From Piscinibacter sp. (GTDB taxonomy: Bacteria; Pseudomonadota; Gammaproteobacteria; Burkholderiales; Burkholderiaceae_C), in the NCBI GenBank assembly GCA_019635485.1, contig JAHBZL010000001.1, positions 124,001-188,000 on the forward strand: a DNA stretch of 64,000 nt, read 5' to 3'. The notes beneath the pieces are model-generated. The model was given only the letters and a program-made list of their open reading frames with translations, made no database searches and was not told where the DNA came from. The position numbers were made by a program, and so were the translations under genes. Of the stretch, positions 12,519-30,147 are shown one piece after another. The first letter of the stretch is position 1. Each line of letters begins with the position of its first letter.

Positions 12519-12546
12519 GCGATCGACGGCGCGCCACAATGCCCGC

Positions 12547-13473: not shown

Positions 13474-13497
13474 GCCGCCACCCACCGGGGTGAGCGG
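13474..13497 (+). terminator. Hairpin after ubiA
   Basis: Inverted repeat GCCGC(c)ACCC / GGGT(ga)GCGGC lies 55 bp after the ubiA stop and 4 bp before the sigma-54 element of the atzF cluster. No T-run follows. It could stop ubiA transcription or form part of an upstream activator region. Confidence 0.35.
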
Positions 13498-13500
13498 CGC

Positions 13501-13516
13501 TGGCACGGTTGATGCT
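13501..13516 (+). promoter_or_regulatory. Sigma-54 (RpoN) -24/-12 promoter of the atzF cluster
   Basis: TGGCACG (13501-13507), four bases, ATGCT (13512-13516) matches the RpoN consensus TGGCACG-N4-TTGCW with one mismatch, and with the exact GG-N10-GC spacing. The start site should be about 12 bp past the GC element, near 13526. That falls inside the palindrome at 13520-13543. A sigma-54 promoter implies activation by an enhancer protein such as NtrC under nitrogen limitation. I could not assign a convincing enhancer site. Confidence 0.7.
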
Positions 13517-13519
13517 GCA

Positions 13520-13543
13520 CACCTTCTTGTATACCAGAAGGTG
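13520..13543 (+). promoter_or_regulatory. 24-bp palindromic operator with GTATAC core before atzF
   Basis: CACCTTCT-t-GTATAC-c-AGAAGGTG is symmetric over 24 bp except for one base pair. Its centre contains TTGTATACCA, which fits the TNGT-N2-ACNA type of site bound by FCD-family GntR regulators. It would cover the start site predicted from the sigma-54 promoter. A GntR/FCD gene closes the cluster at 29412, making it the obvious candidate repressor. Confidence 0.65.
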
Positions 13544-13551
13544 CACCAAAA

Positions 13552-15339
13552 GTGGCGTCCCCGCTCGCGTCTCCCCTTCCCACCCTGGCGGACTGGCAGC
13601 AGGCCTATCGCGATGGCGCGTCGCCCGGCGAGCGCCTGACGGCGCTGCATGCGCAACTGCTCGCCCGCGGCGAAGACGTCGCGGTGATCCGGCTGGTCGA
13701 TGCGACCGCGCTGCGGGCGCGCGTCGCGGCGCTGCAGGCCGCCGCGGCGGCGCACGCCGACCGGGCCGCGCTGCTGCGCGCGTTGCCGCTGTGGGGCGTG
13801 CCGTTCGCGGTCAAGGACAACATCGACATCGAAGGGGTGCCCACCACCGCCGCCTGCCCGGCGTTCGCCCGCCCGGCCGAGCGCAGTGCCGAGGTGGTGC
13901 GCCGGCTCGAGGCGGCCGGTGCGGTGTGGATCGCGAAGACCAACCTGGACCAGTTCGCCACCGGCCTGGTCGGCACGCGCTCGCCCTACGGGCGGCCGGC
14001 CAGCGTGGCCGCGCCGGAGCGCATCAGCGGCGGCTCCAGTTCCGGCTCGGCCGTGCTGGTGGCGCGCGGCGATGTGCCATTCGCGCTCGGCACCGACACC
14101 GGCGGCTCGGGCCGCGTGCCGGCCGGCTTCAACGGGCTGGTCGGCCTGAAGCCGACGCCGGGGCGCGTCAGCACCGCCGGCGTGCTGCCGGCCTGCCGCA
14201 GCCTGGACTGCGTCTCGCTGTTCACCCACAGCGTCGACGACGCCGCGGCGCTGCTGGCACTGCTCGAGGGCCCGGACGAGGCCGACGCGTACAGCCGCTT
14301 CACGCCGGGACCGGCGGCCTGGGCCCCGGCGCTGCGCGTCGGCGTGCCGGCCAGCCCGGTCTTCTTCGGCGATGCCGGCTACGCGCAGGCCTGGCCCGCG
14401 GCGCTGGCACGGCTCGAGGCGGCCGGTCACCGCACCGTGCCGCTGGACTTCGCGCCGCTGCACGAGGTCGCCGCGCTGCTCTACGACGGCCCGTGGGTCG
14501 CCGAGCGCCATGCCGTCGTGAAGGCGCTGCTGGCGCGCCAGCCGGAGGCCTTCGACCCGACGGTGCGGCAGGTGATCGCGAAGGCGCTCGACTTCGATGC
14601 GACCGCCGCGTTCGAGGGCCAGTACCGCCTGCGTGCGCTGGCCGCCCAGGCGGCCCGCACCTGGGCGCAGGTCGACGTGCTGATGGTGCCGACCACGACC
14701 GGCCATCCGCGCTTCGCGGAGGTGGATGCGGATCCGGTCGGCGTCAATTCGGCGCTTGGCCGCTACACCAACTTCGTCAACCTGCTCGACTGGTGCGCGC
14801 TCGCGGTGCCGGCCGGGCAGACGCCGGCGGGTCTGCCGTTCGGCGTCACCTTCATCGCGCCGGCCCGCCACGACGCGGCGCTGGCCCGCTTCGCCCGCGC
14901 CTGGCAGGGAGCGGGCGGCGCCGTGCCGGCCGCCTGGCCGCGCAGCGAGCCGGTGCTGCCGATCGCGGTGGTCGGCGCGCACCTGTCCGGCCTGCCGCTG
15001 AACGGCCAGCTGAACGAACGCGGCGCCACACTGCTCGAGGCCACCACCACCGCACCGCGCTACCGGCTGCATGCGCTGCCCGGCACGGTGCCGCCCAAGC
15101 CCGGACTGGTGCGCGATGAAGCGCATGGCCAGGCCATCGCGCTCGAAGTCTGGGCAATGCCGCAGCGCGCGGTCGGCAGCTTTCTTGCATTGATCCCCGC
15201 GCCGCTCGGCCTCGGTTCGATCGAACTGGCCGATGGCCGACGTGTGCACGGTTTCCTGTGCGAGGCACACGCCGTCGCCGATGCGCCCGATGTCAGCGCC
15301 TTCGGCGGCTGGCGCGCCTACCTCGCTTCCCTGCGTTGA
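13552..15339 (+). CDS. atzF: Allophanate hydrolase (AtzF type)
   Basis: This enzyme hydrolyses allophanate to ammonia and CO2, the last step of biuret and cyanuric acid breakdown. The 595-residue product has an amidase-signature domain with the Lys88/Ser162/Ser186 triad (PFAVKDN, SGGSSSGSA, GTDTGGSGRVPAG) and a complete C-terminal allophanate-hydrolase domain from about residue 465. These positions parallel the triad described for AtzF of Pseudomonas sp. ADP. The start is GTG at 13552, just after the palindromic operator. It is the first gene of the 16-kb cluster. AtzF-type enzymes occur without urea carboxylase, and none is seen here, so the allophanate must come from elsewhere than urea. 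Confidence 0.93.
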   Translation: MASPLASPLPTLADWQQAYRDGASPGERLTALHAQLLARGEDVAVIRLVDATALRARVAALQAAAAAHADRAALLRALPLWGVPFAVKDNIDIEGVPTTAACPAFARPAERSAEVVRRLEAAGAVWIAKTNLDQFATGLVGTRSPYGRPASVAAPERISGGSSSGSAVLVARGDVPFALGTDTGGSGRVPAGFNGLVGLKPTPGRVSTAGVLPACRSLDCVSLFTHSVDDAAALLALLEGPDEADAYSRFTPGPAAWAPALRVGVPASPVFFGDAGYAQAWPAALARLEAAGHRTVPLDFAPLHEVAALLYDGPWVAERHAVVKALLARQPEAFDPTVRQVIAKALDFDATAAFEGQYRLRALAAQAARTWAQVDVLMVPTTTGHPRFAEVDADPVGVNSALGRYTNFVNLLDWCALAVPAGQTPAGLPFGVTFIAPARHDAALARFARAWQGAGGAVPAAWPRSEPVLPIAVVGAHLSGLPLNGQLNERGATLLEATTTAPRYRLHALPGTVPPKPGLVRDEAHGQAIALEVWAMPQRAVGSFLALIPAPLGLGSIELADGRRVHGFLCEAHAVADAPDVSAFGGWRAYLASLR

Positions 15340-15356
15340 ACGGAGTCTTCACCGAT

Positions 15357-16964
15357 ATGGACCGTCGTCGATTCATCCAGAGCGGCAGCGCCGCCGCCGC
15401 CATCGCCTCGCTGCCGACCGTCGCCGGCGCCCAGTCGCGCCCGAAGGACGTGCTGCTCGTCGCCAACGAGTTCGGCCCCAACTCGCTGGACATTCACACC
15501 GTCGGCGCGAACCGCCCCAGCTACGGCGTGAGCTGGATCTGCTACGACCGCCTGCTGACCTACGGCAAGCGCACGCTGCCCGACGGCCGCATCGCCTACG
15601 ACCGCAACAAGCTCGAACCCGAGCTGGCCGAAAGCTGGCAGATGGCGCCGGACGGCAGCTCGGTGACCTTCAAGCTGCGCAAGAACGCCAAGTTCCACGA
15701 CGGCACGCCGGTCACGGCGAAGGACGTGAAGTGGAGCTTCGACCGCGCCGTCACGGTGGGCGGCTTTCCGACCTTCCAGATGGCCGCAGGTTCGCTCGAG
15801 AAGCCCGAGCAGTTCGTGGTCGTCGACGACCACACCTTCATGATCAAGCTGCTGCGCAAGGACAAGCTGACCATGAACGACCTCGGCGTGCCGGTGCCGA
15901 GCATCTTCAACAGCGAGCTGGTCAAGAAGAACGCCACCGCGCAGGACCCCTGGGGCCTGACCTGGACGCGCAACAACACCGCCGGCGGCGGCGCCTACAA
16001 GGTGGAGGCGTTCCGCCCCGGGCAGGAAATCGTCTACGTCCGCTTCGACGACTGGAAGAGCGGCCCGCTGCCGAAGCTGCGCCGCATCGTCCAGCGCGAG
16101 GTGCCGAACGCCGGCAACCGCCGCGCGCTGCTGCTCAAGGGCGACATCGACATCACCTACGACCTGCCGCCGAAGGACTTCTCCGAGCTCTCGAAGGAGG
16201 GCGGCGCCGTCAAGGTGACCAGCGCGCCGATCGAGAACGCGATGTTCTACCTCGGCATGAACGTCACCAAGCCGCCGTTCGACAACGTGAAGGTGCGCCA
16301 GGCGGTGGCGATGGTGCTGCCCTACGAGAAGCTGTACGAGAACGCGCTCTACGGCCGCGCCATCAAGCTGTGGGGCGCGCCGGGCATGCAGGTCAAGAGC
16401 ACCGCCTGGCCGCAGCCGACCGGCTACCACACGGATCTCGCGAAGGCCAAGGCGCTGATGGCCGAGGCGGGTGCGGCCAACGGTTTCGAGACCACGCTCA
16501 GTTTCGACCTCGGCAGCGGCACGGTCAGCGAGCCGATGGCGGTGCTGATCCAGGAGTCGCTGGCGCAGATCGGCATCAAGGCGCAGATCAACAAGATCCC
16601 CGGCGCGACCTGGCGCGCGGCGCTGCTGAAGAAGGACATGCCGATGATCATCAACCGCTTCGGCGGCTGGCTGGACTTCCCCGAGTACTTCTTCTTCTGG
16701 TGCTACCACGGCCAGAACGCCGTGTTCAACACGATGAGCTACCAGAACGCGAAGCTCGACAAGATCATCACCAACGCCCGCTACGCCGAGAGCAAGACGC
16801 TGTACGACTCCTTCGTCAAGGACATGATCCAGATCGCCTTCGACGAGGTGCCGCGCATCCCGCTCGTGCAGCCGACCATGGACGTGGCCATGCAGAAGGA
16901 CGTGCAGGGCTACATGTACTGGTTCCACCTGCAGCCGGACTACCGGCAGCTGGCGAAAGCCTGA
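15357..16964 (+). CDS. ABC importer substrate-binding protein, peptide/nickel (SBP family 5) type
   Basis: The 535-residue product starts MDRRRFIQSGSAAAAIASL, a twin-arginine-like signal peptide. It has the family-5 layout with ELAESWQMAPDGSSVTFKLR, VKWSFDRAV and a C-terminal YMYWFHLQPDYRQL end. Proteins of this family bind peptides, oligosaccharides, nickel chelates or other small molecules in the periplasm. Matching permeases and ATPases (dppBCDF type) are at 25449-29403, separated from it by eight other genes. The likely ligand is the urea condensate that the cluster degrades; this is inference from context. It starts 17 bp after atzF. Confidence 0.9.
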   Translation: MDRRRFIQSGSAAAAIASLPTVAGAQSRPKDVLLVANEFGPNSLDIHTVGANRPSYGVSWICYDRLLTYGKRTLPDGRIAYDRNKLEPELAESWQMAPDGSSVTFKLRKNAKFHDGTPVTAKDVKWSFDRAVTVGGFPTFQMAAGSLEKPEQFVVVDDHTFMIKLLRKDKLTMNDLGVPVPSIFNSELVKKNATAQDPWGLTWTRNNTAGGGAYKVEAFRPGQEIVYVRFDDWKSGPLPKLRRIVQREVPNAGNRRALLLKGDIDITYDLPPKDFSELSKEGGAVKVTSAPIENAMFYLGMNVTKPPFDNVKVRQAVAMVLPYEKLYENALYGRAIKLWGAPGMQVKSTAWPQPTGYHTDLAKAKALMAEAGAANGFETTLSFDLGSGTVSEPMAVLIQESLAQIGIKAQINKIPGATWRAALLKKDMPMIINRFGGWLDFPEYFFFWCYHGQNAVFNTMSYQNAKLDKIITNARYAESKTLYDSFVKDMIQIAFDEVPRIPLVQPTMDVAMQKDVQGYMYWFHLQPDYRQLAKA

Positions 16965-16975
16965 CGGGTCGCACC

Positions 16976-17188
16976 ATGGCACTGACGCCGCAACAGGTCG
17001 AGGCGCTGGTCAACGCGAACGCCGCGGCGCTCGAGCTGCACCTCGCGGCCGAGCACAAGCCCGGCGTGCTGGCGTTCTTCGCGCTGGCCGCCGGCATGGC
17101 CGATCTGGTGATGGGCCAGAAGCTCGGCGTCGAGGACGAGTCCGGCAGCGTGTTCGAGCCGGTGGCGCCGCGGGGGCCGGCCGCATGA
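16976..17188 (+). CDS. atzG: AtzG-like small subunit (DUF4089) of the amidase
   Basis: This 70-residue protein (MALTPQQVEALVNANAAALE, then GVLAFFALAAGMADLVMG) matches the small DUF4089 subunit that forms a tight complex with AtzE in cyanuric acid degraders, and HpxX in oxalurate clusters. It resembles GatC paired with GatA. Its stop overlaps the amidase start (ATGA), consistent with a stoichiometric complex. It follows the solute-binding gene by 11 bp. Confidence 0.85.
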   Translation: MALTPQQVEALVNANAAALELHLAAEHKPGVLAFFALAAGMADLVMGQKLGVEDESGSVFEPVAPRGPAA

Positions 17189-18570
17189 AGGCCACCGAGA
17201 TCGCGGCCCAGGTGCGCAGCGGCGCGCTGTCGGCGGCCAGCGTCGTGCAGTCCAGCCTGGCGCTGATCCAGGCCACCGAGCCGAAGGTCAACGCGTTCAC
17301 CGCGGTGCTCGCCGAGCGCGCGCTCAAGCGCGCTGCGCAGATCGACAAGCACACGCGCCGGGCCGAGCTGTCGCTGGCCGGCGTGCCGTTCGCGGTCAAG
17401 AACCTGTTCGACGTGGCCGGCATCGCGACGCTGGCCGGCTCGAAGATCGAGCGCGACGCGACGCCGGCCGACCGCGACGCACTGCTGGTGCGCCGGCTCG
17501 AGGCGGCCGGCGCCATCCTGGTCGGCGCGCTCAACATGGACGAGTACGCCTACGGCTTCTCGACCGAGAACACGCACTATGGGCCGACGCGCAACCCGCA
17601 CGACCTGGCGCGCATCTCGGGCGGCTCGTCCGGCGGCTCGGCCGCCGCGATCGCCGCGGGGCAGGTGCCGCTGACGCTCGGCTCGGACACCAACGGCTCG
17701 ATCCGCGTGCCCTCGTCGCTGTGCGGCACCTTCGGCCTCAAGCCCACCTACGGCCGCCTGCCGCGCCTCGGGTCGTACCCCTTCTGCGCCAGCCTGGACC
17801 ACCTGGGTCCGTTCGCGCGCAGCGTGGCCGACCTCGCCTTCGCCTACGACGCCATGCAGGGCCCGGCCGCGGACGACCCGCATTGCGCCCAGCGCCCGCC
17901 CGAGCCGACCCGCACGCAGCTGGACGCACCCGCCGAGGGCCTGCGCATCGCCGTGCTGGGCGGCTGGTTCCGCGAGATGGCACTGCCCGAGGCGACGGGC
18001 GCGGTCGACGCCGTGGCGCAGGCACTCGGCACCACGCGCCTCGTCGAACTGCAGGACGTCGACCGTGCCCGCGCCGCCGCCTTCCTGATCACCAACGCCG
18101 AGGGTGCCAACCTGCATCTCGCGGACCTGAAGAAGCGCGCGCAGGACTTCGAGCCGCTCTCGCGCGACCGCTTCCTGGCCGGCACGTTGCTGCCCGCGAC
18201 CTGGGTCGTGCAGGCACAGCGCGTGCGGCGCGCGTTCGCGCGCCAGCTCGCGCGCGTGTTCGAGGCGGTCGACGTGCTGCTCGCGCCGGCCACCCCCTGC
18301 GTCGCGCCACCGATCGGCACCGAGTGGCTGGAGATCAACGGCCAGCGCCTGCCGGCGCGCCCGAGCATGGGCCTGCTGACACAGCCGATCTCGTGCATCG
18401 GCCTGCCCGTGGTCACGGTGCCGCTGTGGGGCATGAACCCGCAGCTGCCGCATCTTCCGATCGGCGTGCAGGTGATCGCCGCGCCCTGGCGCGAGGACCA
18501 CGCGCTGCGCGTCGCCGCGCAGCTCGAGGCGCTGGGTCTCGCGGCCGCCCCGGTCGCGGCGCTGAACTGA
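17185..18570 (+). CDS. atzE: AtzE-like amidase (1-carboxybiuret hydrolase type)
   Basis: The 461-residue amidase-signature enzyme has the triad Lys72 (PFAVKNL), Ser148 (SGGSSGGSA) and Ser172 ([12 protein letters not shown]). With AtzG, AtzE of Pseudomonas sp. ADP deaminates 1-carboxybiuret to 1,3-dicarboxyurea. Related HpxY acts in oxalurate metabolism. The surroundings here (atzG, atzH, atzF, biuret hydrolase-like gene) favour the carboxybiuret reaction. Carboxybiuret is also the product of triuret hydrolysis, which links it to the second cysteine hydrolase of this cluster. The start overlaps atzG by four bases. Confidence 0.85.
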
Positions 18571-18577
18571 GGCGCCG

Positions 18578-18973
18578 ATGGACATCAACCTGCCCGACGT
18601 GCACGCCGAGGTCAGCGCGATCTTCGCGCTGTACGAACAGGCGCTGACGGGCAACGACGTCGCGCTGCTGGACGAGCTGTTCTGGGATTCGCCGCACACG
18701 GTGCGCTACGGCGTGGCCGAGAACCTGGTCGGCATCGACGCGATCCGCGCCTTCCGTGCCGCACGCTCGCCGGTCGGCCTGGCGCGCGAGCTGCACCGCA
18801 CCGTGATCACGACCTACGGCCGCGACGCGGCGACCGCGATGACCGAGTTCGTGCGCGGCGCGCGCCACGGCCGTCAGAGCCAGACCTGGATGCGCCTGCC
18901 GCTGCCCGGGCACGGCGGCTGGCGCGTCGTCGCCGCGCACGTGAGCCTGCTGCCCGAAGCCTCCAGCCCCTGA
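18578..18973 (+). CDS. atzH: AtzH-like DUF3225 protein (dicarboxyurea-processing type)
   Basis: The 131-residue product is a small alpha+beta protein of the SnoaL/NTF2-like fold with the DUF3225 pattern: [36 protein letters not shown] and [10 protein letters not shown]. AtzH in Pseudomonas sp. ADP converts 1,3-dicarboxyurea to allophanate and prevents a dead end; HpxZ is the oxalurate-cluster homologue. The position 7 bp after atzE repeats the known order atzG-atzE-atzH. A C-rich stretch of about 50 bp with a GAGGAG ribosome binding site separates it from the next gene. Confidence 0.82.
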
Positions 18974-19028
18974 CGTTTCCCCCCCCCTGATCCTTCCCCT
19001 GCTGCTTCCCCCTGACGAGGAGACCCTC

Positions 19029-20168
19029 ATGTCGAAGAAGACCCTGATCACCCCCGCGCCCGACGCGCTGCGCCGCCACCTGCTGGCCGGCAGCGCGCTC
19101 GCCGCCGGCTCGCTGCTGCTGCCCGGGGCGCTGCGCCGCGCCGGGGCGCAGGCGCCCCTCGTGGTCGGCGTGATCTACGTCGGCCCGCGCGGCGACTTCG
19201 GCTACAACCAGGCGCAGGCGCAGGCCGCCGCGGCGATCAAGAAGCTGCCCGGCGTGAAGGTGGTCGAGGAGGAGAACGTGCCCGAGACCACCGCGGTGCA
19301 GAAGACGATGGAGGCCATGATCAACCAGGACGGGGCCTCGCTGATCTTCCCGACCTCGTTCGGCTACTTCGACCCGCACATGCTGAAGATGGCCGCGAAG
19401 TACCCGAAGGTGCGCTTCGCCCACTGCGGCGGCCTGTGGACCGAGGGCAAGCACCCGAAGAACACCGGCAGCTACTTCGGCTACATCGACGAGTGCCAGT
19501 TCCTGGCCGGCGTGGTCGCGGGCTACACCAGCAAGACCAAGAAGCTCGGCTTCATCGCCGCCAAGCCGATCCCGCAGGTGCTGCGCAACATCAACGCGTT
19601 CACGCTCGGTGCGCGCATGGTCGACCCGGCCTTCACGACACGCGTGATCTTCACCGGCGAGTGGTCGATGCCGGTCAAGGAAGCCGAGGCCTCGACCAGC
19701 CTGATCGACCAGGGCGTGGACGTGCTGACCTGCCACGTCGACAGCCCGAAGGTGATCGTCGAGACGGCCGAGAAGCGCGGCATCTTCGCGAGTGGCTACC
19801 ACGCCAGCCAGGCGGCGCTCGCGCCCAAGGGCTACCTGACCGGCGCCGAGTGGGACTGGGCCACGCCCTACAACGCGCAGATCAAGGCGGCGCAGAGCGG
19901 CGCCCCGATGCCCAACTTCCTGCGCGGCGGCCTGAAGGACGGCTACGTGAAGATGTCGCCGTACGGCGCCGCGGTCGGCGCGCCCGCCAAGGCCAAGGCC
20001 GACGAGATCAAGGCCGCGATGATGAAAGGCGGCTACGTCATCTTCAAGGCCGGCATCAAGGACAACAAGGGCAGTGTCGTCGTCGCCAAGAACCTCGACC
20101 AGTTCGACCCCGAGCTCGAGAAGATGAACTACCTCGTGGAAGGGGTCGTCGGGGCGATTCCCGGCTGA
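19029..20168 (+). CDS. BMP-family ABC importer substrate-binding protein
   Basis: The 379-residue product has a signal peptide with two arginines before a hydrophobic core (residues 15-42, ending GAQA). The BMP/PnrA-type ligand-binding domain follows, with GVIYVGPRGDFGYNQAQ, INQDGASLIFPTSFGY and LGFIAAKPIPQVLRNINAF. Family members mainly bind nucleosides and purines, and some are tied to ureide and pyrimidine catabolism. Two permeases and a two-domain ATPase of the same transporter class follow. A planar, hydrogen-bond-rich urea derivative would suit such a site, but the ligand is inferred only. A GAGGAG ribosome binding site precedes the ATG at 19029. Confidence 0.9.
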   Translation: MSKKTLITPAPDALRRHLLAGSALAAGSLLLPGALRRAGAQAPLVVGVIYVGPRGDFGYNQAQAQAAAAIKKLPGVKVVEEENVPETTAVQKTMEAMINQDGASLIFPTSFGYFDPHMLKMAAKYPKVRFAHCGGLWTEGKHPKNTGSYFGYIDECQFLAGVVAGYTSKTKKLGFIAAKPIPQVLRNINAFTLGARMVDPAFTTRVIFTGEWSMPVKEAEASTSLIDQGVDVLTCHVDSPKVIVETAEKRGIFASGYHASQAALAPKGYLTGAEWDWATPYNAQIKAAQSGAPMPNFLRGGLKDGYVKMSPYGAAVGAPAKAKADEIKAAMMKGGYVIFKAGIKDNKGSVVVAKNLDQFDPELEKMNYLVEGVVGAIPG

Positions 20169-20183
20169 GCGGCGGAGCCCGCG

Positions 20184-21287
20184 ATGAGCAGCATCCCGGT
20201 GCCGGCCGGTACGCCGGTCGCCACGCCCTCGGCGACGGCCCTGAAACTGCGTGCCACGCTCGACGCGCTGCTGCCCGTGCTCGCGGCGCTGCTGCTGACG
20301 GTGCTGCTGTTCTCGCTCGCCGTCGCGCTGGCCGGCTTCAATCCGCTCGAGGTCTGGGGCCTGATCGTGCGGGGCGGCTTCGGCGACGCGTTCGCCTGGC
20401 AGAACACCCTGCAGCGCGCCGCGCCGCTGCTGCTCACCGGCCTCGCCGTGGCGCTGCCGGCCCAGGCCGGGCGGGTGATCATCGGCAACGAAGGGGCGCT
20501 GGTGCTCGGCGGCCTCGCCGCCGCGGCGGTCGGCAGCGCGCTCGCGGCGGCCGGGCCGGTCGTCGTCTGGCCGGCGATGGCGCTGGCCGGGATGGCGGCC
20601 GGCGGCGTCTGGATCGGCATCGTCGGCTGGCTGCGCGAGGCACGCGAAGTCAACGAGACGATCTCCAGCCTGCTGATGTCGTTCATCGCGATCGCGCTGT
20701 TCAACCAGTGCGTCGAGACCGTGCTGCGCGACCCGGCCAGCCTGAACAAGCCGTCGACCAAACCGCTGCCGGACGAGCTGCTGCTGCCGCCGCTGCCGGG
20801 TCTGGACGTGCACTGGGGCCTCGCGCTCGGCCTGCTCGCCGCGCTGGCCGCCTGGGTGGTGATGCGCTTCACGCCGCTCGGTCTCGCGCTGCGCGTGGCC
20901 GGCGGCAACGCGCGCACCGCGCTCGGCGTCGGCCTGCCCGTGCGCGCGCTGACGATCGGCGCCTGCGCGGCGGGCGGCGCCTGCGCGGGCCTGGCCGGCG
21001 CGGTCGAGGTCGGCGCTGTGCACGGCGCGGCCAATGCGTCGCTGATCGCCGGCTACGGCTACAGCGGCATCCTGATCGCGTTCGCGGCGCGCTTCTCGCC
21101 GGCCGGCGTGGTGCCGGTGGCGATCCTGGTCGGCGGCATCGCCGCCAGCGGCAGCCTGCTGCAGCGCCGCCTCGGTCTGCCCGACGCCTCGGTCACGGTG
21201 CTGCTGGGCATCGCGTTCGTTGCGTTGATCGGCTGCGAGACCTTGCGCGGCCGCAGCTTCTTCAGCAAGGGAGGCCGCCATGGCTGA
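20184..21287 (+). CDS. BMP-type ABC importer permease, first subunit
   Basis: The 367-residue polytopic protein belongs to the BPD_transp_2 permeases found with BMP solute-binding proteins (YufP/NupB-like). Visible features are a first hydrophobic segment after residue 30, the block GRVIIGNEGALVLGGLAAAA, and EVNETISSLLMSFIAIALFN, typical of this subunit. It begins 15 bp after the binding protein and overlaps the second permease by 8 bp. Confidence 0.9.
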   Translation: MSSIPVPAGTPVATPSATALKLRATLDALLPVLAALLLTVLLFSLAVALAGFNPLEVWGLIVRGGFGDAFAWQNTLQRAAPLLLTGLAVALPAQAGRVIIGNEGALVLGGLAAAAVGSALAAAGPVVVWPAMALAGMAAGGVWIGIVGWLREAREVNETISSLLMSFIAIALFNQCVETVLRDPASLNKPSTKPLPDELLLPPLPGLDVHWGLALGLLAALAAWVVMRFTPLGLALRVAGGNARTALGVGLPVRALTIGACAAGGACAGLAGAVEVGAVHGAANASLIAGYGYSGILIAFAARFSPAGVVPVAILVGGIAASGSLLQRRLGLPDASVTVLLGIAFVALIGCETLRGRSFFSKGGRHG

Positions 21288-22206: not shown

Positions 22207-22223
22207 ACCCGCAGGAGACGACG

Positions 22224-22919
22224 ATGACGACCTTCTCCCGCGTCGATGCCAACCCCTACGCCTGGCCGTTCGACGGCGCCTGGCGCGTCGCCGACACGGC
22301 GCTCGTGATCATCGACATGCAGACCGACTTCGTCGGCCTGGGCGGCTACGTCGACCGCATGGGCTACGACCTCACCGCCGTGCGCGCGCCGATCGGCCCG
22401 ATCGCGGCGCTGCTGGCGAAGGCACGCGCGCTCGGCATGCACGTGATCCATACCCGCGAGGGCCACCGTCCCGACCTCGCCGACCTGCCGGCCAACAAGC
22501 GCTGGCGTTCGCGCCAGATCGGCGAGGGCGGCATCGGCATCGGCGACCCAGGCCCCTGCGGCCGCATCCTGGTGCGCGGCGAGCCGGGCTGGCAGATCAT
22601 CCCGGAGCTGGCCCCGGCGGACGGCGAGCCGGTCATCGACAAGCCCGGCAAGGGCTCGTTCTGCGCCACCGACCTGGAGCTGATCCTCACGACGCGCGGC
22701 ATCCGCAACCTGCTGCTGACCGGCGTGACCACCGACGTGTGCGTGCACACCACGATGCGCGAGGCGAACGACCGCGGCTACGAATGCCTGATCGTCAGCG
22801 ACGGCACCGGCGCCACCGATCCCGGCAACCACGCCGCGGCGCTGAAGATGGTGACGATGCAGGGCGGCGTGTTCGGCGCGGTGGCATCGTCCGCCGCGAT
22901 CCTGAAGGCACTGGGGTGA
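22224..22919 (+). CDS. biuH: Biuret amidohydrolase-like cysteine hydrolase
   Basis: The 231-residue product belongs to the isochorismatase-like cysteine hydrolases and resembles, from memory, the biuret hydrolase BiuH of Rhizobium leguminosarum along most of its length. Matching blocks include [41 protein letters not shown] and [18 protein letters not shown]. The catalytic triad would be Asp31 (IIDMQTDF), Lys139 (DKPGKGSF) and Cys172 ([19 protein letters not shown]). BiuH converts biuret to allophanate and ammonia, feeding AtzF. It is inserted between the permease and ATPase genes of the BMP importer, tying import to hydrolysis. Confidence 0.87.
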
Positions 22920-22923
22920 TGCG

Positions 22924-24522
<1,599 letters not shown>

Positions 24523-24523
24523 C

Positions 24524-25186
24524 ATGAACACCGTCGCCGCACGCCCCTACCCCTACCCGTTCGACCCGGCGCACACCGCGGTCGTGATGATCGACATGCA
24601 GCGCGACTTCCTCGAGCCCGGTGGCTTCGGCGCGATGCTGGGCAACGACGTCACGACGCTGCAGGGCATCGTGCCGGCCTGCGCGCGGCTGCTCGCCCTG
24701 GCGCGCACGCACGGCATGACGGTGATCCACACGCAGGAGGCGCACGACCGCCAGCTGGCCGACTGCCCGCCGTCCAAGCGCGCGCGCGGCGGGCTCGCCT
24801 GCGGCATCGGCGACCCCGGCCCGCTCGGACGCGTGCTGGTCGAGGGCGAGCCGGGTGCGGGGTTCGTGCCCGAGCTGCAGCCGCAGCCGGGCGACATCGT
24901 GCTGCGCAAGCCGGGCAAGGGCGCCTTCCACGCCACCGGTCTGGACGCCATGCTGCACGCACGCGGCATCACGCACCTGCTGATCGGCGGCGTGACCACC
25001 GAGGTCTGCGTGCAGACCACGATGCGCGAGGCCAACGACCGTGGCTACGAGTGCCTGCTCGTCACGGACTGCACGGCGAGCTATTTCCCGCAGTTCCATG
25101 CGGCGGTGGTCGAGATGGTGGTGGCGCAGGGCGGCATCGTCGGCTGGGCGGCGCCGCTGGCGGCGGTCGAGGGTGCGCTGGCATGA
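24524..25186 (+). CDS. Isochorismatase-like cysteine hydrolase, possible triuret hydrolase
   Basis: This 220-residue enzyme is a paralogue of the biuret hydrolase-like protein. They share [46 protein letters not shown] and [19 protein letters not shown]. The triad is Asp24, Lys129 and Cys162. The substrate loop differs: [16 protein letters not shown] replaces [16 protein letters not shown], and FHATG replaces FCATD. So a related but different substrate is expected. The triuret hydrolase TrtA, which makes carboxybiuret, belongs to this family and would supply AtzE. A ureidoacrylate (RutB) or another biuret-type activity is also possible. It follows the ABC ATPase by one base. Confidence 0.8.
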
Positions 25187-25448
25187 GGGCGCCGAGTGAT
25201 CTGGCGGTGTCCGATGGCGACCCACTGTCGTCCTTCGCCTTCTGCTTCCTGCGTGGTGCGGGGCAAGCCGAGCCGCGCCCGGACGGGTGTCGGCGTTCCC
25301 GCGCCGCGTCCAGCGGCTGCGGGACCCAGCGAACACCGCGGATCCGGCTCTGCCGGTCCGCTGGTGTTGCCCCCTTGAGGGGGCGCGCGCAGCGCGTACG
25401 GGGGTGGTCCGGACCGGGCCGCGACCTGCCTATCCGAGGAGTCCCGAG
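25187..25448 (+). repeat. Gene-free 262-bp segment with REP-like palindromes
   Basis: No convincing gene lies here. It contains CCGG-CTCTG-CCGG (about 25344-25356) and the near-perfect palindrome GCCCCCT-TG-AGGGGGC (25369-25384), followed by an alternating GCGCGCGCAGCGCG stretch and TACGGGGGTGG. This composition resembles the short repeated intergenic elements of Burkholderiales genomes, though multiple copies cannot be verified from one window. The palindrome could also attenuate transcription between the BMP and Dpp halves of the cluster. Confidence 0.45.
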
Positions 25449-26465
25449 ATGATCGTCAAGGTGATCGGCAAGCGCCTGCTCGGTGCCTTGCCCAACCTGA
25501 TCGGCGTGGTCGTCATCACCTTCGTGCTGACGCGCGCGCTGCCGGGCGACCCGGCGGCCTACTTCGCCGGCGCGTCGGCCACGCAGGAGGCGATCGACCA
25601 GGTGCGCGCACAGCTCGGACTGGACAGGCCGCTGCCGGAACAGTTCTTCCGCTACGTCGGTGACCTCGCGCGCGGCGAGCTCGGCACCTCGCTCACGACC
25701 GGCCAGCCGGTGCTGCAGGAGCTGCTGACGCGCCTGCCGGCCTCGATCGAGATGGTGCTGCTGGCGTTGACGCTGGCCTGCGCGATCGCACTGCCGCTCG
25801 GCGTGCTGGCCGCCACCCGGCCCGGCTCGTGGATCGACCAGCTGTGCCGGCTCGTGACCACCGCCGGCGTCTCGCTGCCGACCTTCTTCACCGGGCTCGT
25901 ACTGGCCTACGTCTTCTACTTCCTGCTCGGCTGGGCGCCTTCGCCGCTCGGCCGGCTCGACCCGATGTGGTCGCCGCCGCCGACCTTCACCGGGCTGTAC
26001 CTGATCGACTCGATCATCGCCGGTGACGCCGCGCTCTGGTGGGCCAGCTTCAAGCAGCTCGTGCTGCCGACCGTGACGATGGCCATCTTCGTGCTCGCGC
26101 CGATCGCACGCATGACACGCGCCTCGATGCTCGCGGTGCTCGGCAGCGACTTCGTGCGCACCGCGCGCGCCTCCGGACTGTCCGCCTCGACGGTGCTCGT
26201 CAAGTACGCGCTGCGCAACGCGCTGCTGCCGGTCGTCACGACACTGGGCATGGTGTTCGGCTTCATGCTCGGCTCCAGCGTGGTGATCGAGAAGGTGTTC
26301 GGCTGGCCCGGCGTCGGCAGCTACGCGATCGACGCGCTGACGGCGAGCGACTACGCGCCGATCCAGGGCTTCGTGCTGGCGATGGGGGTGCTGTTCGTGC
26401 TGCTCAACCTGGTGATCGACCTGCTCTACACGCTGATCGATCCGCGCGTCTCGCTGGAAGGGTGA
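25449..26465 (+). CDS. Dipeptide/nickel-type ABC importer permease, DppB family
   Basis: The 338-residue inner-membrane protein has the DppB/OppB N-terminus (GKRLLGALPNLIGVVVITFV) with the PGDPAAYFAG block. Its C-terminal EAA-like loop (MLAVLGSDFVRTARASGLS) docks onto the ATPases. It belongs with the solute-binding protein at 15357 and the genes at 26573-29403. The start at 25449 precedes the conserved N-terminal helix; the upstream open frame reads through the repeat region and is discounted. Confidence 0.93.
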   Translation: MIVKVIGKRLLGALPNLIGVVVITFVLTRALPGDPAAYFAGASATQEAIDQVRAQLGLDRPLPEQFFRYVGDLARGELGTSLTTGQPVLQELLTRLPASIEMVLLALTLACAIALPLGVLAATRPGSWIDQLCRLVTTAGVSLPTFFTGLVLAYVFYFLLGWAPSPLGRLDPMWSPPPTFTGLYLIDSIIAGDAALWWASFKQLVLPTVTMAIFVLAPIARMTRASMLAVLGSDFVRTARASGLSASTVLVKYALRNALLPVVTTLGMVFGFMLGSSVVIEKVFGWPGVGSYAIDALTASDYAPIQGFVLAMGVLFVLLNLVIDLLYTLIDPRVSLEG

Positions 26466-26572
26466 ACGATGGCCGTCGCACAGTGCTTCACGAGCTCGGC
26501 GCCGGGCCGCCCCAAGCCGGGCTCGATCCACTCGGGGGATCGCCGGCGGTACTCCGCAGGCGAGGGGCAGAC
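26466..26572 (+). repeat. Short spacer with a REP-like hairpin between the two permeases
   Basis: The 107-bp gap between the dppB- and dppC-type genes is unusual, since the rest of this operon is tightly packed. It holds the hairpin CGATCC-ACTCGGG-GGATCG (26524-26542) inside a GC-rich block that looks like a degenerate repeated element. The downstream frame is open through it, but it does not read as a protein. Confidence 0.4.
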
Positions 26573-27418
26573 ATGAACGAGACCCTCAAGCACGTCCGCC
26601 ACGTGCTGTCCGAGAACCCGGTGACGATGCTCGCCGCCGGCCTGTTCGCGCTGTTCGTGCTGCTGGCGCTGGTCGGCCCGGCGCTCGTGCCCTACGACCC
26701 GCTGGCCAGCGACGCCGCGGCAGCGCTGCAGCCGCCGTCGGCCGCGCACTGGTTCGGCACCGACGCGCTCGGCCGCGACATCCTCTCGCGCACGCTGGTC
26801 GCGACGCGGCTGGACCTGGGCATCGCGCTGGCCGCGGTGGTGCTGTCCTTCGGGATCGGCATCGCGCTCGGGCTCGCGGCCGGCTTCTTCGGCGGCTGGT
26901 GGGACGCGATCATCACGCGCGGCGCCGACACCATCATGGCCTTCCCGCTGTTCGTGCTGGCGATGGGCATCGTCGCGGCGCTCGGCAACACGGTCGGCAA
27001 CATCGTGCTGGCGACGGCGATCATCAACCTGCCGTTCTACATCCGCGTCGCCCGAGCCGAGGCCAACGTGAGGCGCGGCGCCGGCTTCATCGAGGCGGCC
27101 CGGCTGGCCGGCAACGGCGACGCGCGCATCCTCGCGGCGCACCTGTTCCCGAACATCCTGCCGCCGGCGATGGTGCAGGTCAGCCTGAACATGGGCTGGG
27201 CGATCCTGAACGCCGCCGGCCTGTCGTTCATCGGCCTGGGCGTTCGGCCGCCGACGCCGGAGTGGGGCATCCTGGTCGCCGAGGGCGCGCAGTTCATCGT
27301 CTCGGGCGAGTGGTGGGTCAGCTTCTTCCCGGGCGCCGTGCTGATGCTGGCGGTGTTCACCTTCAACCTGCTCGGGGATGCGCTGCGCGACATCTTCGAC
27401 CCCCGTCGGAGGACCTGA
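26573..27418 (+). CDS. Dipeptide/nickel-type ABC importer permease, DppC family
   Basis: The 281-residue permease has the DppC/OppC pattern: an N-terminal membrane helix, VPYDPLASD, and HWFGTDALGRDILSRTLVAT. The coupling loop follows near ARAEANVRRGAGFIEAARL. It pairs with the DppB-type subunit. The ATG at 26573 was preferred because the earlier in-frame sequence passes through the repeat spacer and lacks family similarity. The stop is followed at once by the first ATPase gene. Confidence 0.93.
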   Translation: MNETLKHVRHVLSENPVTMLAAGLFALFVLLALVGPALVPYDPLASDAAAALQPPSAAHWFGTDALGRDILSRTLVATRLDLGIALAAVVLSFGIGIALGLAAGFFGGWWDAIITRGADTIMAFPLFVLAMGIVAALGNTVGNIVLATAIINLPFYIRVARAEANVRRGAGFIEAARLAGNGDARILAAHLFPNILPPAMVQVSLNMGWAILNAAGLSFIGLGVRPPTPEWGILVAEGAQFIVSGEWWVSFFPGAVLMLAVFTFNLLGDALRDIFDPRRRT

Positions 27419-27419
27419 G

Positions 27420-28451
27420 ATGAGTGCGGCACCTCTCCTCGACGTGCGCGGCTTCGGCCTCGAGTTCCGCACCCGCAGCGGCACGGTGCGCGCGCTCGAG
27501 GGCATCGACCTGACGCTGCGCAAGGGCGAGATCGTCGGCCTGGTCGGGGAGAGCGGCTCGGGCAAGTCGGTGCTGAGCTATGCGATGCTCGGCATCTCCG
27601 ACCGCGCCGCGAAGGTCACGGGCGGCAGCGCGGTGTTCGCCGGCATCGACCTGCTGAAGGCGGACGAGTCGACGCTCGCCGACCTGCGCGGGCGCGACAT
27701 CTCGATGATCTTCCAGAGCCCGCGCACCGCGCTGAACCCGATCCGCACGGTCGGCCGGCAGATCGAGGACGTGCTGCGCCGGCACGCCGCGGCGCGCGGC
27801 GCCGACCTCGCGAAGAGCCTGCGCGAGCGCGCGGTGCAGTCCTTGCGCGAGGTGGCGATCTCCGACCCGGAGCGGCGCCATGGTGCCTACCCGTTCGAGA
27901 TGTCCGGCGGCATGTGCCAGCGCGTGATGATCGCGCTGGCGCTGGCCTGCCGGCCCAGCCTGCTGATCGCCGACGAGCCGACCACCGGGCTGGACGTCAC
28001 CACGCAGGCGGCGGTGATGGACCTGATCACGACGCTCGCGCACGAGCGCCAGATGGCCACGCTGTTCATCACGCACGACCTCGCGCTGGCGGCCGACTAT
28101 TGCGACCGCATCGTCGTGATGCATGCCGGGCACGCGGTCGAGACCGCGCCGTCGCGCGAGCTGTTCGCGCGGCCGCGCCATCCGTACACCGCGCGGCTGC
28201 TCAGTTCGACGCCGGACGGCGAGTCGCGCTCGGCGCAGACGCTGCGTCCCGTGCCGGGCAACCTGCCCGACCTGCGCCGCACCGACCTGCCGGCCTGCCG
28301 CTTCGCCGAGCGCTGCGAGCGGCGCAGCGAGCGCTGCACCACCGAACGCCCCGCGCTGGATCCGGCGCAGGCGCACGCCGTCGCCTGCTGGCATCCCCTG
28401 GACGGCGCCGCGGCGCCGTCCGCCGCGCCCCCGGAGACCGCCCATGCCTGA
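27420..28451 (+). CDS. Dipeptide-type ABC importer ATPase, DppD family
   Basis: The 343-residue ATPase shows Walker A (GESGSGKSVL), Q-loop (MIFQSPRTALNP), signature (MSGGMCQRVMIALAL) and Walker B (LLIADEPTTGLDVT). It also has the C-terminal oligopeptide-transporter domain, with a cysteine cluster (DLPACRFAERCERRSERC) resembling the iron-sulfur or metal site of DppD/OppD proteins. It overlaps the next ATPase by 8 bp; the two form the heterodimeric motor. Confidence 0.94.
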   Translation: MSAAPLLDVRGFGLEFRTRSGTVRALEGIDLTLRKGEIVGLVGESGSGKSVLSYAMLGISDRAAKVTGGSAVFAGIDLLKADESTLADLRGRDISMIFQSPRTALNPIRTVGRQIEDVLRRHAAARGADLAKSLRERAVQSLREVAISDPERRHGAYPFEMSGGMCQRVMIALALACRPSLLIADEPTTGLDVTTQAAVMDLITTLAHERQMATLFITHDLALAADYCDRIVVMHAGHAVETAPSRELFARPRHPYTARLLSSTPDGESRSAQTLRPVPGNLPDLRRTDLPACRFAERCERRSERCTTERPALDPAQAHAVACWHPLDGAAAPSAAPPETAHA

Positions 28452-29403
28452 CGCCGCCCCGCTGCTGCAGCTCGAACGTGTGCAGCGCCGCTTCCCCGTC
28501 GGCGGCGGCCGGGTGCTGCACGCCGTCGACGACCTCAGCCTCTCGCTCGCGCCGGGCGAGAGCCTCGGACTGGTCGGCGAGTCGGGCTGCGGCAAGAGCA
28601 CGCTGGTGCGCCTGATCGCGCGCCTGCTGGACACGAGCGGCGGGCGCATCGTGTTCGACGGCCAGGACCTGGCGGCGGAGCCGGCGCGGCGCTTCGCGAA
28701 GGCGCCCCAGCGGCACGAGATCCAGATGGTGTTCCAGGATCCGACCGACAGCCTGAACCCGCGTTTCACCGCGCGCGAGGCGATCCGCGAGCCGCTCACG
28801 CTGCTGACGAAGACCGGGCGCGCCGCGGCCGACGCACGCGTCGACGAGGTCGCCGAGCAGGTCGGGCTGCCGGCCGCGCTGCTGTCGCGCTTTCCGCACC
28901 AGCTCTCGGGCGGGCAGAAGGCGCGGGTCGGTATCGCGCGCGCGCTGGCGGTCAAGCCGCGCCTGCTGATCCTGGACGAACCCACCGCGGCGCTGGACGT
29001 CTCGGTGCAGGCCGTCGTGCTGCAGCTGCTCGAGCGCCTGCGCGACGAGCTCGGCCTGTCGCTGCTGTTCGTCTCGCACGACCTGAACGTGGTGCGCCTG
29101 CTGACCGACCGCGTCGCGGTGATGTACCTCGGCAAGCTGATCGAGATCGGCCCGTCCGAGCAGGTGTTCCGCTCGCCCAAGCACCCGTACACGCAGTCGC
29201 TGATCTCGGCGATCCCGGGGCAGGGGCCGCGCATCCGCCTGTCCGGCGAGGTCAGCAGCCCGATCGATCCGCCGCCGCAGGTGTGCCGCTTCCACGGCCG
29301 CTGCCCGCGCGGCGAGGACCGCTGCGCCCGCGAGGCGCCGCCGTTGCGCCCGCTCGGGCAGCAGCTGGTGGCCTGCCACTTCGCCGACGCGGCGACGGCA
29401 TAG
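28444..29403 (+). CDS. Dipeptide-type ABC importer ATPase, DppF family
   Basis: The 319-residue second ATPase has Walker A (GESGCGKSTLV), Q-loop (MVFQDPTDSLNPR), signature (LSGGQKARVGIARAL) and Walker B (LLILDEPTAALDVS). Its C-terminal cysteine motif (VCRFHGRCPRGEDRC) is typical of DppF/OppF. It starts within the end of the DppD-type gene and completes the second importer. The GntR regulator begins 8 bp downstream. Confidence 0.94.
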   Translation: MPDAAPLLQLERVQRRFPVGGGRVLHAVDDLSLSLAPGESLGLVGESGCGKSTLVRLIARLLDTSGGRIVFDGQDLAAEPARRFAKAPQRHEIQMVFQDPTDSLNPRFTAREAIREPLTLLTKTGRAAADARVDEVAEQVGLPAALLSRFPHQLSGGQKARVGIARALAVKPRLLILDEPTAALDVSVQAVVLQLLERLRDELGLSLLFVSHDLNVVRLLTDRVAVMYLGKLIEIGPSEQVFRSPKHPYTQSLISAIPGQGPRIRLSGEVSSPIDPPPQVCRFHGRCPRGEDRCAREAPPLRPLGQQLVACHFADAATA

Positions 29404-29411
29404 ACTGGAGC

Positions 29412-30125
29412 ATGCCCCTGCGCAGCGTCACTACGCCCCTGCCCGATCCGGCCCGCGCCAACCTGGCCGAGCAGGCCTATGCGCAGCTGAAGGAGATGAT
29501 CCACGACTACGCGCTGCTGCCCGGCGACCGCTTCTCTGAGTCCGAGATGGGCGCCCGCCTGGGCGTCAGCCGCACGCCGGTTCGGGAGGCGCTGTTCCGG
29601 CTGCGCAACGAGGGCTTCCTGGACGTCGAGAGCAAGAGCGGCTGGTACGTGCGGCCGATCGACTTCGACCGGCTCGACCAGCTCTACGACCTGCGCGTGC
29701 TGCTCGAGCTGGCCAGCGTCGCGCGGCTGTGCGCGCGCACCAGCGATCCGCCCGAACTGGAGGCGCTGAAGGAGGCCTGGCTGGTGCCGGCAGGGGAACG
29801 ACTGAGCGAGATGCGCGAGGTCGGCGCGCTCGACGAGCAGTTCCACGCGACGCTGGTGCGTGCGGCCGGCAATGCCGAGATCGCCAAGGTGCACTGGGAC
29901 GTGACCGAGCGCATCCGCATCGTGCGGCGGCTCGACTTCACGCGCGAGGACCGCATTGACGCCACCTATGTCGAGCACGCCAAGATCCTGCGCGCGGTGC
30001 TGCAGCGCAAGCTCGACCAGGTGCAGCTGCTGCTGAAGTCGCACATCGAGCAGAGCAAGGCCGAAGTGCGCAAGATCACACTGGGCACGCTGCACGACGC
30101 CCGGCTGCGCGCGCGCCGCGGCTGA
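29412..30125 (+). CDS. GntR-family (FCD) transcriptional regulator of the cluster
   Basis: The 237-residue product has an N-terminal winged helix (EQAYAQLKEMIHDYALLPGD, FSESEMGARLGVSRTPVREA) and a C-terminal FCD all-helical ligand domain, with conserved acidic and histidine residues around DEQFHATLVRAAGN and YVEHAKILRAV. FCD members usually act as ligand-released repressors and bind GTnnnAC- or GTATAC-centred palindromes, such as the one at 13520-13543. As the last gene of the operon it probably controls atzF and the downstream genes. The ATG at 29412 fits; earlier in-frame codons lie inside the previous gene. Confidence 0.9.
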   Translation: MPLRSVTTPLPDPARANLAEQAYAQLKEMIHDYALLPGDRFSESEMGARLGVSRTPVREALFRLRNEGFLDVESKSGWYVRPIDFDRLDQLYDLRVLLELASVARLCARTSDPPELEALKEAWLVPAGERLSEMREVGALDEQFHATLVRAAGNAEIAKVHWDVTERIRIVRRLDFTREDRIDATYVEHAKILRAVLQRKLDQVQLLLKSHIEQSKAEVRKITLGTLHDARLRARRG

Positions 30126-30147
30126 CCTGGCGCCGGATAATCCGGCC

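What the first reader, a model, noticed from the sequence alone, without database searches (positions are those of the whole stretch)
13501..30125. Nitrogen-scavenging cluster for biuret-like urea condensates with two interleaved importers
Fifteen co-directional genes combine all late steps of the cyanuric acid pathway (atzG-atzE-atzH-atzF and a biuret hydrolase-like gene) with two complete ABC importers and a GntR regulator. Cyanuric acid hydrolase is absent. The substrate therefore probably enters as biuret, triuret, carboxybiuret or another linear ureide. A proposed route is triuret to carboxybiuret (hydrolase at 24524), then by AtzEG and AtzH to allophanate, or via biuret by BiuH, then by AtzF to ammonia and CO2. 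Family assignments rest on motifs; the pathway is inferred.
Basis: partly seen in the sequence, partly recalled or inferred. Interest (0 to 1): 0.82.

Follow-up and report, generated by a model that had tools for sequence, protein, structure and literature searches.

The report
Triuret and biuret nitrogen-scavenging operon
A bacterium carries one 16-gene operon that looks built to import the urea condensates triuret and biuret and break them down to ammonia for use as nitrogen; the chemistry is already known from other bacteria, but this version joins two gene modules that also occur separately, each with its own importer.

Summary
The hydrolase at 24524 has 14 of 14 TrtA (triuret hydrolase) residues and TrtA as best PDB match; the one at 22224 passes NCBI's BiuH cut-off. 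AtzH keeps all nine described pocket residues. No AtzD was found in the own genome, which is 84% complete. Most likely function: triuret -> carboxybiuret -> (AtzGE, AtzH) -> allophanate -> NH3 + CO2, with BiuH taking imported or spontaneously formed biuret. New here: the operon fuses two modules (BMP importer + BiuH + TrtA; Dpp importer + AtzGEH) that lie on different contigs in relative G158, where both have sigma54-like promoters and similar operator-like sites. A sigma54-like site at 13501-13516 suggests nitrogen control. No locus examined has two AtzH-like genes; stand-alone (TrtB-like) copies mostly lack one pocket arginine. The TrtA, BiuH, AtzGEH and AtzF chemistry is published, so this is a variant of a known kind. 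Activities and importer substrates are untested.

The parts
13501..13516 (+). sigma54-type promoter-like site TGGCACGGTTGATGCT (GG-N10-GC)
   Evidence: only exact match to TGGCACNNNNNWTGCW in the window; pattern conserved before atzF in 7 of 9 family relatives; such sites enriched before trtA clusters
13522..13541 (.). operator-like dyad CCTTCTTGTATACCAGAAGG at the expected start of transcription, perhaps for the GntR regulator; the AGAAGG arm may also be the ribosome-binding site
   Evidence: core motif occurs once in the window; GTATAC core in 7 of 9 family relatives by eye; regulator link is inference
13552..15339 (+). atzF, allophanate hydrolase (amidase + AH_C domain)
   Evidence: PRK08186 778.6 bits (cut-off 487), TIGR02713 732.3 (511.05), PF21986 173.4
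15357..16964 (+). family-5 (peptide type) binding protein of the Dpp-like importer
   Evidence: PF00496 290 bits; next to dppBCDF in L161-L164
16976..17188 (+). atzG
   Evidence: PF13318 43.5 bits, cut-off 24
17185..18570 (+). atzE, 1-carboxybiuret hydrolase catalytic subunit
   Evidence: NF006631 715.2 (461); 58.9% identical to atzE of pADP-1; PDB 6c62 540 bits, next GatA 216
18578..18973 (+). atzH, putative 1,3-dicarboxyurea decarboxylating enzyme
   Evidence: PF11533 182.5; PDB 6bjt 151.5 bits; 9 of 9 pocket residues
19029..20168 (+). BMP-family (AtzT-like) binding protein
   Evidence: PF02608 135.7; PDB AtzT 6pi5 210.8 bits; pocket comparison
20184..21287 (+). BPD_transp_2 permease 1
   Evidence: PF02653
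21280..22206 (+). BPD_transp_2 permease 2
   Evidence: PF02653
22224..22919 (+). biuH, biuret hydrolase
   Evidence: NF050097 401.8 (cut-off 370); PDB 6azo 372.7 bits; all six BiuH-type residues
22924..24522 (+). double ATP-binding subunit of the BMP importer
   Evidence: PF00005, two stretches
24524..25186 (+). trtA, triuret hydrolase
   Evidence: PDB 6xix (TrtA) 301.7 bits; 14 of 14 TrtA residues
25449..26465 (+). dppB-type permease
   Evidence: PF00528, PF19300
26573..27418 (+). dppC-type permease
   Evidence: PF00528, PF12911
27420..28451 (+). dppD-type ATPase
   Evidence: PF00005, PF08352
28444..29403 (+). dppF-type ATPase
   Evidence: PF00005, PF08352
29412..30125 (+). GntR-FCD regulator
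   Evidence: PF00392, PF07729

Best explanation
An operon, probably under nitrogen-limitation control, for import and full hydrolysis of triuret and biuret. Proposed steps: uptake by the AtzT-like BMP importer and the Dpp-like importer; TrtA cuts triuret to carboxybiuret + NH3; AtzGE cuts carboxybiuret to 1,3-dicarboxyurea + NH3; AtzH decarboxylates it to allophanate; AtzF cuts allophanate to NH3 + CO2; BiuH turns imported biuret, or biuret formed by spontaneous decarboxylation of carboxybiuret, into allophanate. Enzyme identities rest on sequence and residues; the flow, the control and the importer substrates are inferred. The operon joins two modules that also occur apart: atzF/BMP importer/biuH/trtA/gntR and Dpp importer/atzGEH.
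For: TrtA: 14 of 14 residues incl. F35, N41, A134, E160, Y187, I205, best PDB match 6xix. BiuH: above the NF050097 cut-off, the six differing sites are Y, Y, S, D, T, V. AtzE and AtzH. Neighbourhood: of the 80 best named trtA loci (not a random sample, many cut by contig ends) 69 have BiuH, 73 the ATPase, 59 the BMP protein. In a sample of 398 phylum genomes, 14 of 19 with this Dpp binding protein also have TrtA, against 21 of 379 without it (p 9e-13; by genus 5 of 10 vs 15 of 202, p 8e-4); the 14 include the own genome and one of its genus. All 11 sampled genomes outside the family whose Dpp locus also shows AtzE have TrtA. In G158 the modules lie on different contigs (L164, L260), both with sigma54-like and TTGTRTACCA sites.
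Against: No activity, uptake or transcription is measured. NCBI's HpxZ (oxalurate) model also matches AtzH, and Klebsiella HpxZ has the same nine pocket residues. Five genomes carry a more distant Dpp binding protein (44-51% identity) with AtzF but no TrtA, and one such locus (L206) has urea carboxylase, so that importer family is not tied to triuret alone. The operator motif lay near a gene start in only 3 of 29 named loci with the GntR gene and 3 of 51 without. The absence of AtzD rests on an 84% complete genome; G205, with nearly the same operon, has three AtzD-family genes elsewhere.
Confidence: 0.85

Rival explanations
1. AtzGEH in this operon serves oxalurate or another acyl-urea (HpxXYZ role), and only BiuH, TrtA and AtzF serve triuret and biuret.
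For: AtzH exceeds the NCBI HpxZ cut-off (185 vs 135); Klebsiella HpxZ shares all nine pocket residues.
Against: NCBI also names the AtzH of the cyanuric acid operon of Pseudomonas sp. ADP HpxZ, so the label does not discriminate. No HpxW-like (gamma-glutamyltransferase) gene among the 16. AtzG and AtzE lie near a TrtA-type gene in L208 and L214, where no other cysteine hydrolase is annotated in the stretch. All 11 sampled genomes outside the family whose Dpp locus also shows AtzE have TrtA; nine of them are one genus.
Confidence: 0.12
2. A cyanuric acid operon that has lost, or has elsewhere, its AtzD.
For: AtzGEHF and an AtzT-like importer match the Pseudomonas sp. ADP set; AtzD-family genes occur in G205 and in 7 of 11 genomes checked that carry the Dpp-AtzGEH module.
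Against: No AtzD match in the own genome and none above cut-off in 6 of 7 relatives with the cluster; TrtA is in the operon and makes the same product, carboxybiuret (PMC7948467, parts 1-4 of 6 read).
Confidence: 0.05
3. The two importers serve quite different nutrients that happen to share an operon, for instance a guanine-like purine for the BMP system and peptides for the Dpp system.
For: AtzT, the nearest solved BMP protein, binds guanine (PMC6834077, passages); the Dpp binding protein is only distantly related to any solved one (best 147.5 bits).
Against: In 74 other BMP proteins from the fetched loci (over 300 bits to the window's) the guanine-contacting Glu165 is Gln in 61, Asn218 is His in 73 and Asn220 is Asp in 73, while Trp194 is kept in 74 and position 45 is Tyr or Trp in 72. 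His and Asp also occur in 3s99 (alignment; its adenine ligand is recalled), so only Gln165 is distinctive. Both modules have the same kind of promoter sites in G158.
Confidence: 0.2

Closest known systems
Triuret pathway operons (TrtA, BiuH, AtzF; TrtB) of Herbaspirillum and R. leguminosarum, and the biuH contigs of ammonia oxidisers
   Same: TrtA, BiuH and AtzF with matching residues or models; BMP-type (bmpA-nupABC) importer and GntR as described for such contigs in PMC12625717 (passages read)
   Different: here AtzGE + AtzH can take carboxybiuret, no separate TrtB is present, and a second, Dpp-type importer is added
Cyanuric acid operon atzDGEHF and atzRSTUVW of Pseudomonas sp. ADP
   Same: AtzG, AtzE, AtzH, AtzF, an AtzT-type importer and (reported there, predicted here) sigma54 control
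   Different: no AtzD found; TrtA and BiuH instead; GntR instead of LysR; one operon
atzF-atzGEH clusters of Rhizobacter, Leptothrix, Methylibium, Variovorax, Rhodoferax (PMC6219798, parts 1-4 of 5 read, figure not seen)
   Same: atzF upstream on the same strand, ABC importer genes between and downstream, further amidases downstream: probably the same arrangement
   Different: the text assigns no substrate and names neither TrtA nor BiuH there
hpxWXYZ oxalurate genes of Klebsiella
   Same: HpxX, HpxY and HpxZ are homologues of AtzG, AtzE and AtzH
   Different: no HpxW among the 16 genes; TrtA, BiuH and AtzF present

Membership tests
TrtA triuret hydrolase | catalytic D24, K129, C162 plus TrtA-type F35, N41, A134, E160, Y187, I205 and Q202 | tested here: met
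   14 of 14 residues; 301.7 bits to 6xix against 232.9 or less to BiuH chains
TrtA triuret hydrolase | activity on triuret, near none on biuret | not testable with these tools
   needs assay
BiuH biuret hydrolase | NCBI equivalog cut-off and BiuH-type residues | tested here: met
   401.8 vs 370; Y,Y,S,D,T,V
1-carboxybiuret hydrolase AtzEG | AtzE-family amidase with an adjacent AtzG-like subunit | tested here: met
AtzH (rather than TrtB) | Tyr22 and the arginine-rich pocket; AtzGE adjacent | tested here: met
   9 of 9 residues, AtzE 7 bp upstream; the AtzH/TrtB division itself is my inference
Cyanuric acid operon | cyanuric acid hydrolase AtzD | tested here: not met
   no PF09663 match at E<=10 in the own genome, which is 84% complete
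hpxWXYZ oxalurate system | HpxW (gamma-glutamyltransferase family) with HpxXYZ | tested here: not met
   none among the 16 genes; rest of the genome not searched for it
sigma54-controlled operon | GG-N10-GC promoter-like site before the first gene | tested here: met
   13501-13516
sigma54-controlled operon | transcription that depends on RpoN and nitrogen limitation | not testable with these tools
   needs expression data
AtzT-type guanine/triazine binding protein | guanine-contacting Glu165, Asn218, Asn220 | tested here: not met
   Gln, His, Asp in the window protein; Tyr45, Ser97, Phe98 and Trp194 kept

The most novel reading that the evidence does not exclude
Bacteria use two interchangeable ways to clear carboxybiuret after TrtA: a stand-alone TrtB decarboxylase feeding BiuH, or AtzGE + AtzH feeding AtzF directly. 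Both use the same small fold, and the repeated loss of one pocket arginine (Arg66 in AtzH numbering) marks the change from the dicarboxylate to the monocarboxylate substrate. The window's operon is the AtzGEH type, fused with a dedicated Dpp importer for a charged ureide, under nitrogen (sigma54) and ligand (GntR) control.
Probability: 0.4. Interest if true: 0.55.

Novelty: new variant of a known kind. Interest (0 to 1): 0.4.

Why it matters
It ties the widespread atzGEH gene set, whose role outside cyanuric acid degradation was left open in 2018 (PMC6219798), to triuret through genome co-occurrence and similar promoter sites, and gives testable predictions: which importer carries which ureide, and which residue separates AtzH from TrtB. 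Triuret and biuret are impurities of urea fertiliser and triuret is a urate oxidation product (PMC7948467), so this bears on soil nitrogen cycling. The chemistry itself is not new.

Tried and rejected
First residue table was wrong: reverse-strand loci were not turned and the numbering was off by three; redone, whose numbers are used.

The idea that the Dpp + AtzGEH module serves a substrate unrelated to triuret was dropped: all 11 genomes tested that carry that module had a TrtA with 14 of 14 residues elsewhere, and the 398-genome cross-table agrees. Nine of those eleven are one genus, so they are not independent.

A general link between the GntR gene and the TTGTATACCA motif was not supported in the 80 named loci (3 of 29 with the gene, 3 of 51 without); within the window's own family the GTATAC core is there, by eye, in 7 of 9 loci.

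The Arg66 rule: Arg in 50 of 51 AtzH-like proteins with AtzE less than 1 kb upstream, another residue in 17 of 19 from loci without AtzE. Exceptions: L126 (Ser, AtzE directly upstream), L070 (Arg, at a contig edge) and L202 (Arg). In L074 and L085 a copy without this Arg lies 3.4 kb from AtzE in the same locus, so the TrtB-like form and AtzE are not strictly exclusive. Against a causal reading, Arg66 variants of AtzH were not among those reported with lowered activity in PMC6219798. The AtzH tree is poorly resolved (32 of 71 inner branches open).

Absence of urease in the own genome is not used: seven of seven relatives have it and the assembly is incomplete. Sigma70-type promoters in 13300-32700: none found; terminator-like sites no more than in shuffles. 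No structure was predicted.
Full report
What is there. The + strand of 13552-30125 carries sixteen genes with gaps of -8 to 107 bp, apart from 262 bp between trtA and dppB. In order: atzF; a family-5 binding protein; atzG; atzE; atzH; a BMP-family binding protein; two BPD_transp_2 permeases; biuH; a double ATPase; trtA; dppB, dppC, dppD, dppF; a GntR-FCD regulator. Upstream on the same strand is a UbiA-like gene (named from the sequence; also upstream in L155 of the same genus), and a GGDEF gene starts 22 bp downstream.

Which hydrolase is which. The 22224-22919 product scores 401.8 against NCBI's BiuH model (cut-off 370) and 372.7 bits against the R. leguminosarum BiuH structure 6azo. The 24524-25186 product falls below that model (248.1) and matches Herbaspirillum TrtA (6xix) best, 301.7 bits. 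The TrtA paper (PMC7948467; parts 1-4 of 6 read) names the residues that differ between TrtA and BiuH. At 14 functional positions the 24524 product has every TrtA residue, and the 22224 product has the BiuH type at all six differing positions. So the operon has a predicted triuret hydrolase and a predicted biuret hydrolase.

The AtzGEH branch. AtzE is 58.9% identical to the atzE product of pADP-1 and matches PDB 6c62 with 540 bits, the next best being GatA with 216; 6c62 is named 'Biuret hydrolase' there, and that it is the AtzE-AtzG complex is recalled. AtzG has its Pfam domain. AtzH matches AtzH structures best and keeps the nine pocket residues described in PMC6219798 (parts 1-4 of 5 read), including Tyr22 and Arg46. 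NCBI's HpxZ name for this family is not evidence for oxalurate, because the AtzH of the cyanuric acid operon carries the same name.

AtzH and TrtB. TrtA makes carboxybiuret, which decays to biuret with a half-life of about 20 minutes (PMC7948467). Published triuret clusters contain TrtB, a carboxybiuret decarboxylase (PMC7948467; PMC12625717, passages read). In the 80 named trtA loci (the best 80 of 577 confirmed matches) I find a stand-alone AtzH-like gene without AtzE (16), AtzE with an AtzH-like gene (20, of which 3 not close together), AtzE alone (1), or neither (43); none has two AtzH-like genes. Many loci are cut by contig ends. I take the stand-alone gene to be TrtB; that is inference from position. 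One pocket residue tracks the split: Arg66 (AtzH numbering) is Arg in 50 of 51 proteins with AtzE less than 1 kb upstream and something else in 17 of 19 from loci without AtzE. Chemically this fits a dicarboxylate versus a monocarboxylate substrate, but Arg66 variants were not reported as impaired in AtzH, so the residue is a marker rather than a proven switch. On the AtzH tree the label 'no AtzE' needs seven changes, at least four of them forced by supported branches.

Two modules. In the 80 trtA loci the block BMP-permease-permease-BiuH-ATPase-TrtA recurs: BiuH in 69, ATPase in 73, BMP protein in 59, but DppB in 3 and the Dpp binding protein in 2. Seen from the other side, 20 loci of Dpp binding-protein relatives outside the family show AtzF in 14, AtzE in 11, TrtA in 1 and BiuH in 0. 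Within the family, L154, L155, L156 and L160 have the full order of the window and L158 has 14 of the 16 genes in that order; L161 and L162 have atzF, binding protein, dppBCDF, then AtzE-AtzH, then the BMP-BiuH-TrtA block and GntR, which indicates that the window's binding protein belongs with its distant dppBCDF. In G158 (89% complete) the two modules lie on different contigs (L164 and L260), and both start with a sigma54-like site (11 of 12) followed by TTGTGTACCA or TTGTATACCA. Co-occurrence supports a joint role: in 398 genomes of the phylum (same sample size and handles in both searches), TrtA at E<=1e-70 is in 14 of 19 with the Dpp binding protein and in 21 of 379 without. Three genomes whose only match was weaker (7e-55 to 3e-60, a more distant hydrolase) were left out of the TrtA count. 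The 14 include the own genome and G240 of its genus, and nine are one other genus; counted by genus it is 5 of 10 against 15 of 202. The five genomes with the binding protein but no TrtA have its most distant relatives (44-51% identity), beside AtzF and without AtzE.

Control. The sequence at 13501-13516 is the only exact match to TGGCACNNNNNWTGCW in the window on both strands; with one mismatch allowed the count is no more than chance (4 found, 3.64 expected). The weight comes from position and conservation: it ends 35 bp before the atzF start and recurs before atzF in 7 of 9 family relatives. Among the named trtA loci, 50 of 80 could be scored (BMP gene on the + strand, enough upstream DNA): the best site in 400 bp before the first gene scores at least 11 of 12 in 22 of 50, against 1.6% of 1000 random windows of the same loci; the random windows are not all intergenic. 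The three cyanobacterial loci in that set have no site, as expected for bacteria without sigma54 (recalled), though low G+C also lowers the odds. The atz operons of Pseudomonas sp. ADP are sigma54-controlled (PMC6834077, part 1 read). The dyad at 13522-13541 overlaps the expected start of transcription and may be the GntR operator; in the wider set the motif is not tied to the GntR gene.

Importers. The nearest solved BMP protein is AtzT, 210.8 bits. In AtzT guanine is stacked between Tyr45 and Trp194 and held by Glu165, Asn218, Asn220 and Ser97 (PMC6834077, passages). In 74 relatives of the window protein from the fetched loci Trp194 is kept in 74, Ser97 in 72 (2 gaps) and position 45 is Tyr in 59 and Trp in 13, but Glu165 is Gln in 61, Asn218 His in 73 and Asn220 Asp in 73. 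The window has Tyr, Trp, Ser, Gln, His and Asp. A planar ligand other than guanine, such as a linear ureide, is a fair guess. The Dpp substrate is unknown.

Known or new. Triuret degradation by TrtA, BiuH and AtzF, carboxybiuret hydrolysis by AtzGE, and contigs with trtA, biuH, trtB, atzF, bmpA-nupABC and gntR are in print. PMC6219798 describes, in words that fit this operon, atzF-ABC-atzGEH-ABC-amidase clusters in Rhizobacter, Leptothrix, Methylibium and others, without naming a substrate. In my searches of the held library I saw no report of TrtA with AtzGEH and a Dpp importer in one operon, nor of sigma54 control of triuret genes. These were listings (one search held 956 papers, 20 listed), and most subscription journals are missing, so this is weak evidence of absence. 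I therefore call it a new variant of a known kind.

Noticed in passing
window 25187-25448: The 262-bp spacer between trtA and dppB contains a dispersed genomic repeat (43 further partial matches listed in the own genome); in the relative L155 the aligned parts of trtA and dppB are about 35 bp apart, so the window's copy looks like a later insertion.
   Followed up: partly
L232 and (243 plasmid records): A cluster of atzF, BMP importer, formamidase, BiuH-like and TrtA-like (58.9% identity) genes and GntR lies between IS1 elements on an Enterobacter plasmid. TrtA-like matches at E<=1e-60 occur in 118 Rhizobium, 77 Escherichia and 13 Klebsiella plasmid records; 126 of all 243 are predicted conjugative.
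   Followed up: partly
L028 1501-2100, L029 1501-2106: A third clade of isochorismatase-like hydrolases, 46-48% identical to TrtA, keeps the catalytic residues but has Tyr for Lys132 and Glu for Gln202; substrate unknown.
   Followed up: no
L212 13620-14995: Two adjacent BiuH-like hydrolases in Salipiger lack the critical Gln202 and sit between the Dpp binding protein and a permease gene; probably another ureide.
   Followed up: no
L208 21663-23264, L214 8199-9782: Genes named 'regulator' beside TrtA and AtzF/AtzG encode very hydrophobic proteins that look like NCS2-type permeases (my reading of the sequence; no Pfam or NCBIfam match), a possible third kind of importer.
   Followed up: no
L206 15720-19899: A distant relative of the Dpp importer with atzF lies near a urea carboxylase (TIGR02712, 1122 bits, below its cut-off as the frame is cut by the stretch) and a gene that looks like a 2OG-Fe(II) oxygenase (reading of the sequence; no NCBIfam match), so this importer family is used with other allophanate-forming pathways.
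   Followed up: no
window about 11400-12560, - strand: Two open frames between the prfC-like and ubiA-like genes resemble an Xre/MbcA/ParS-type antitoxin and a RES-domain protein, a possible toxin-antitoxin pair (recalled from the sequence; not tested).
   Followed up: no
window 30148-31941: A GGDEF (diguanylate cyclase) gene with a weak TPR match starts 22 bp after the GntR gene in the same direction; it is also downstream in L155 of the same genus but was not found in the other family loci fetched, several of which end soon after gntR.
   Followed up: partly
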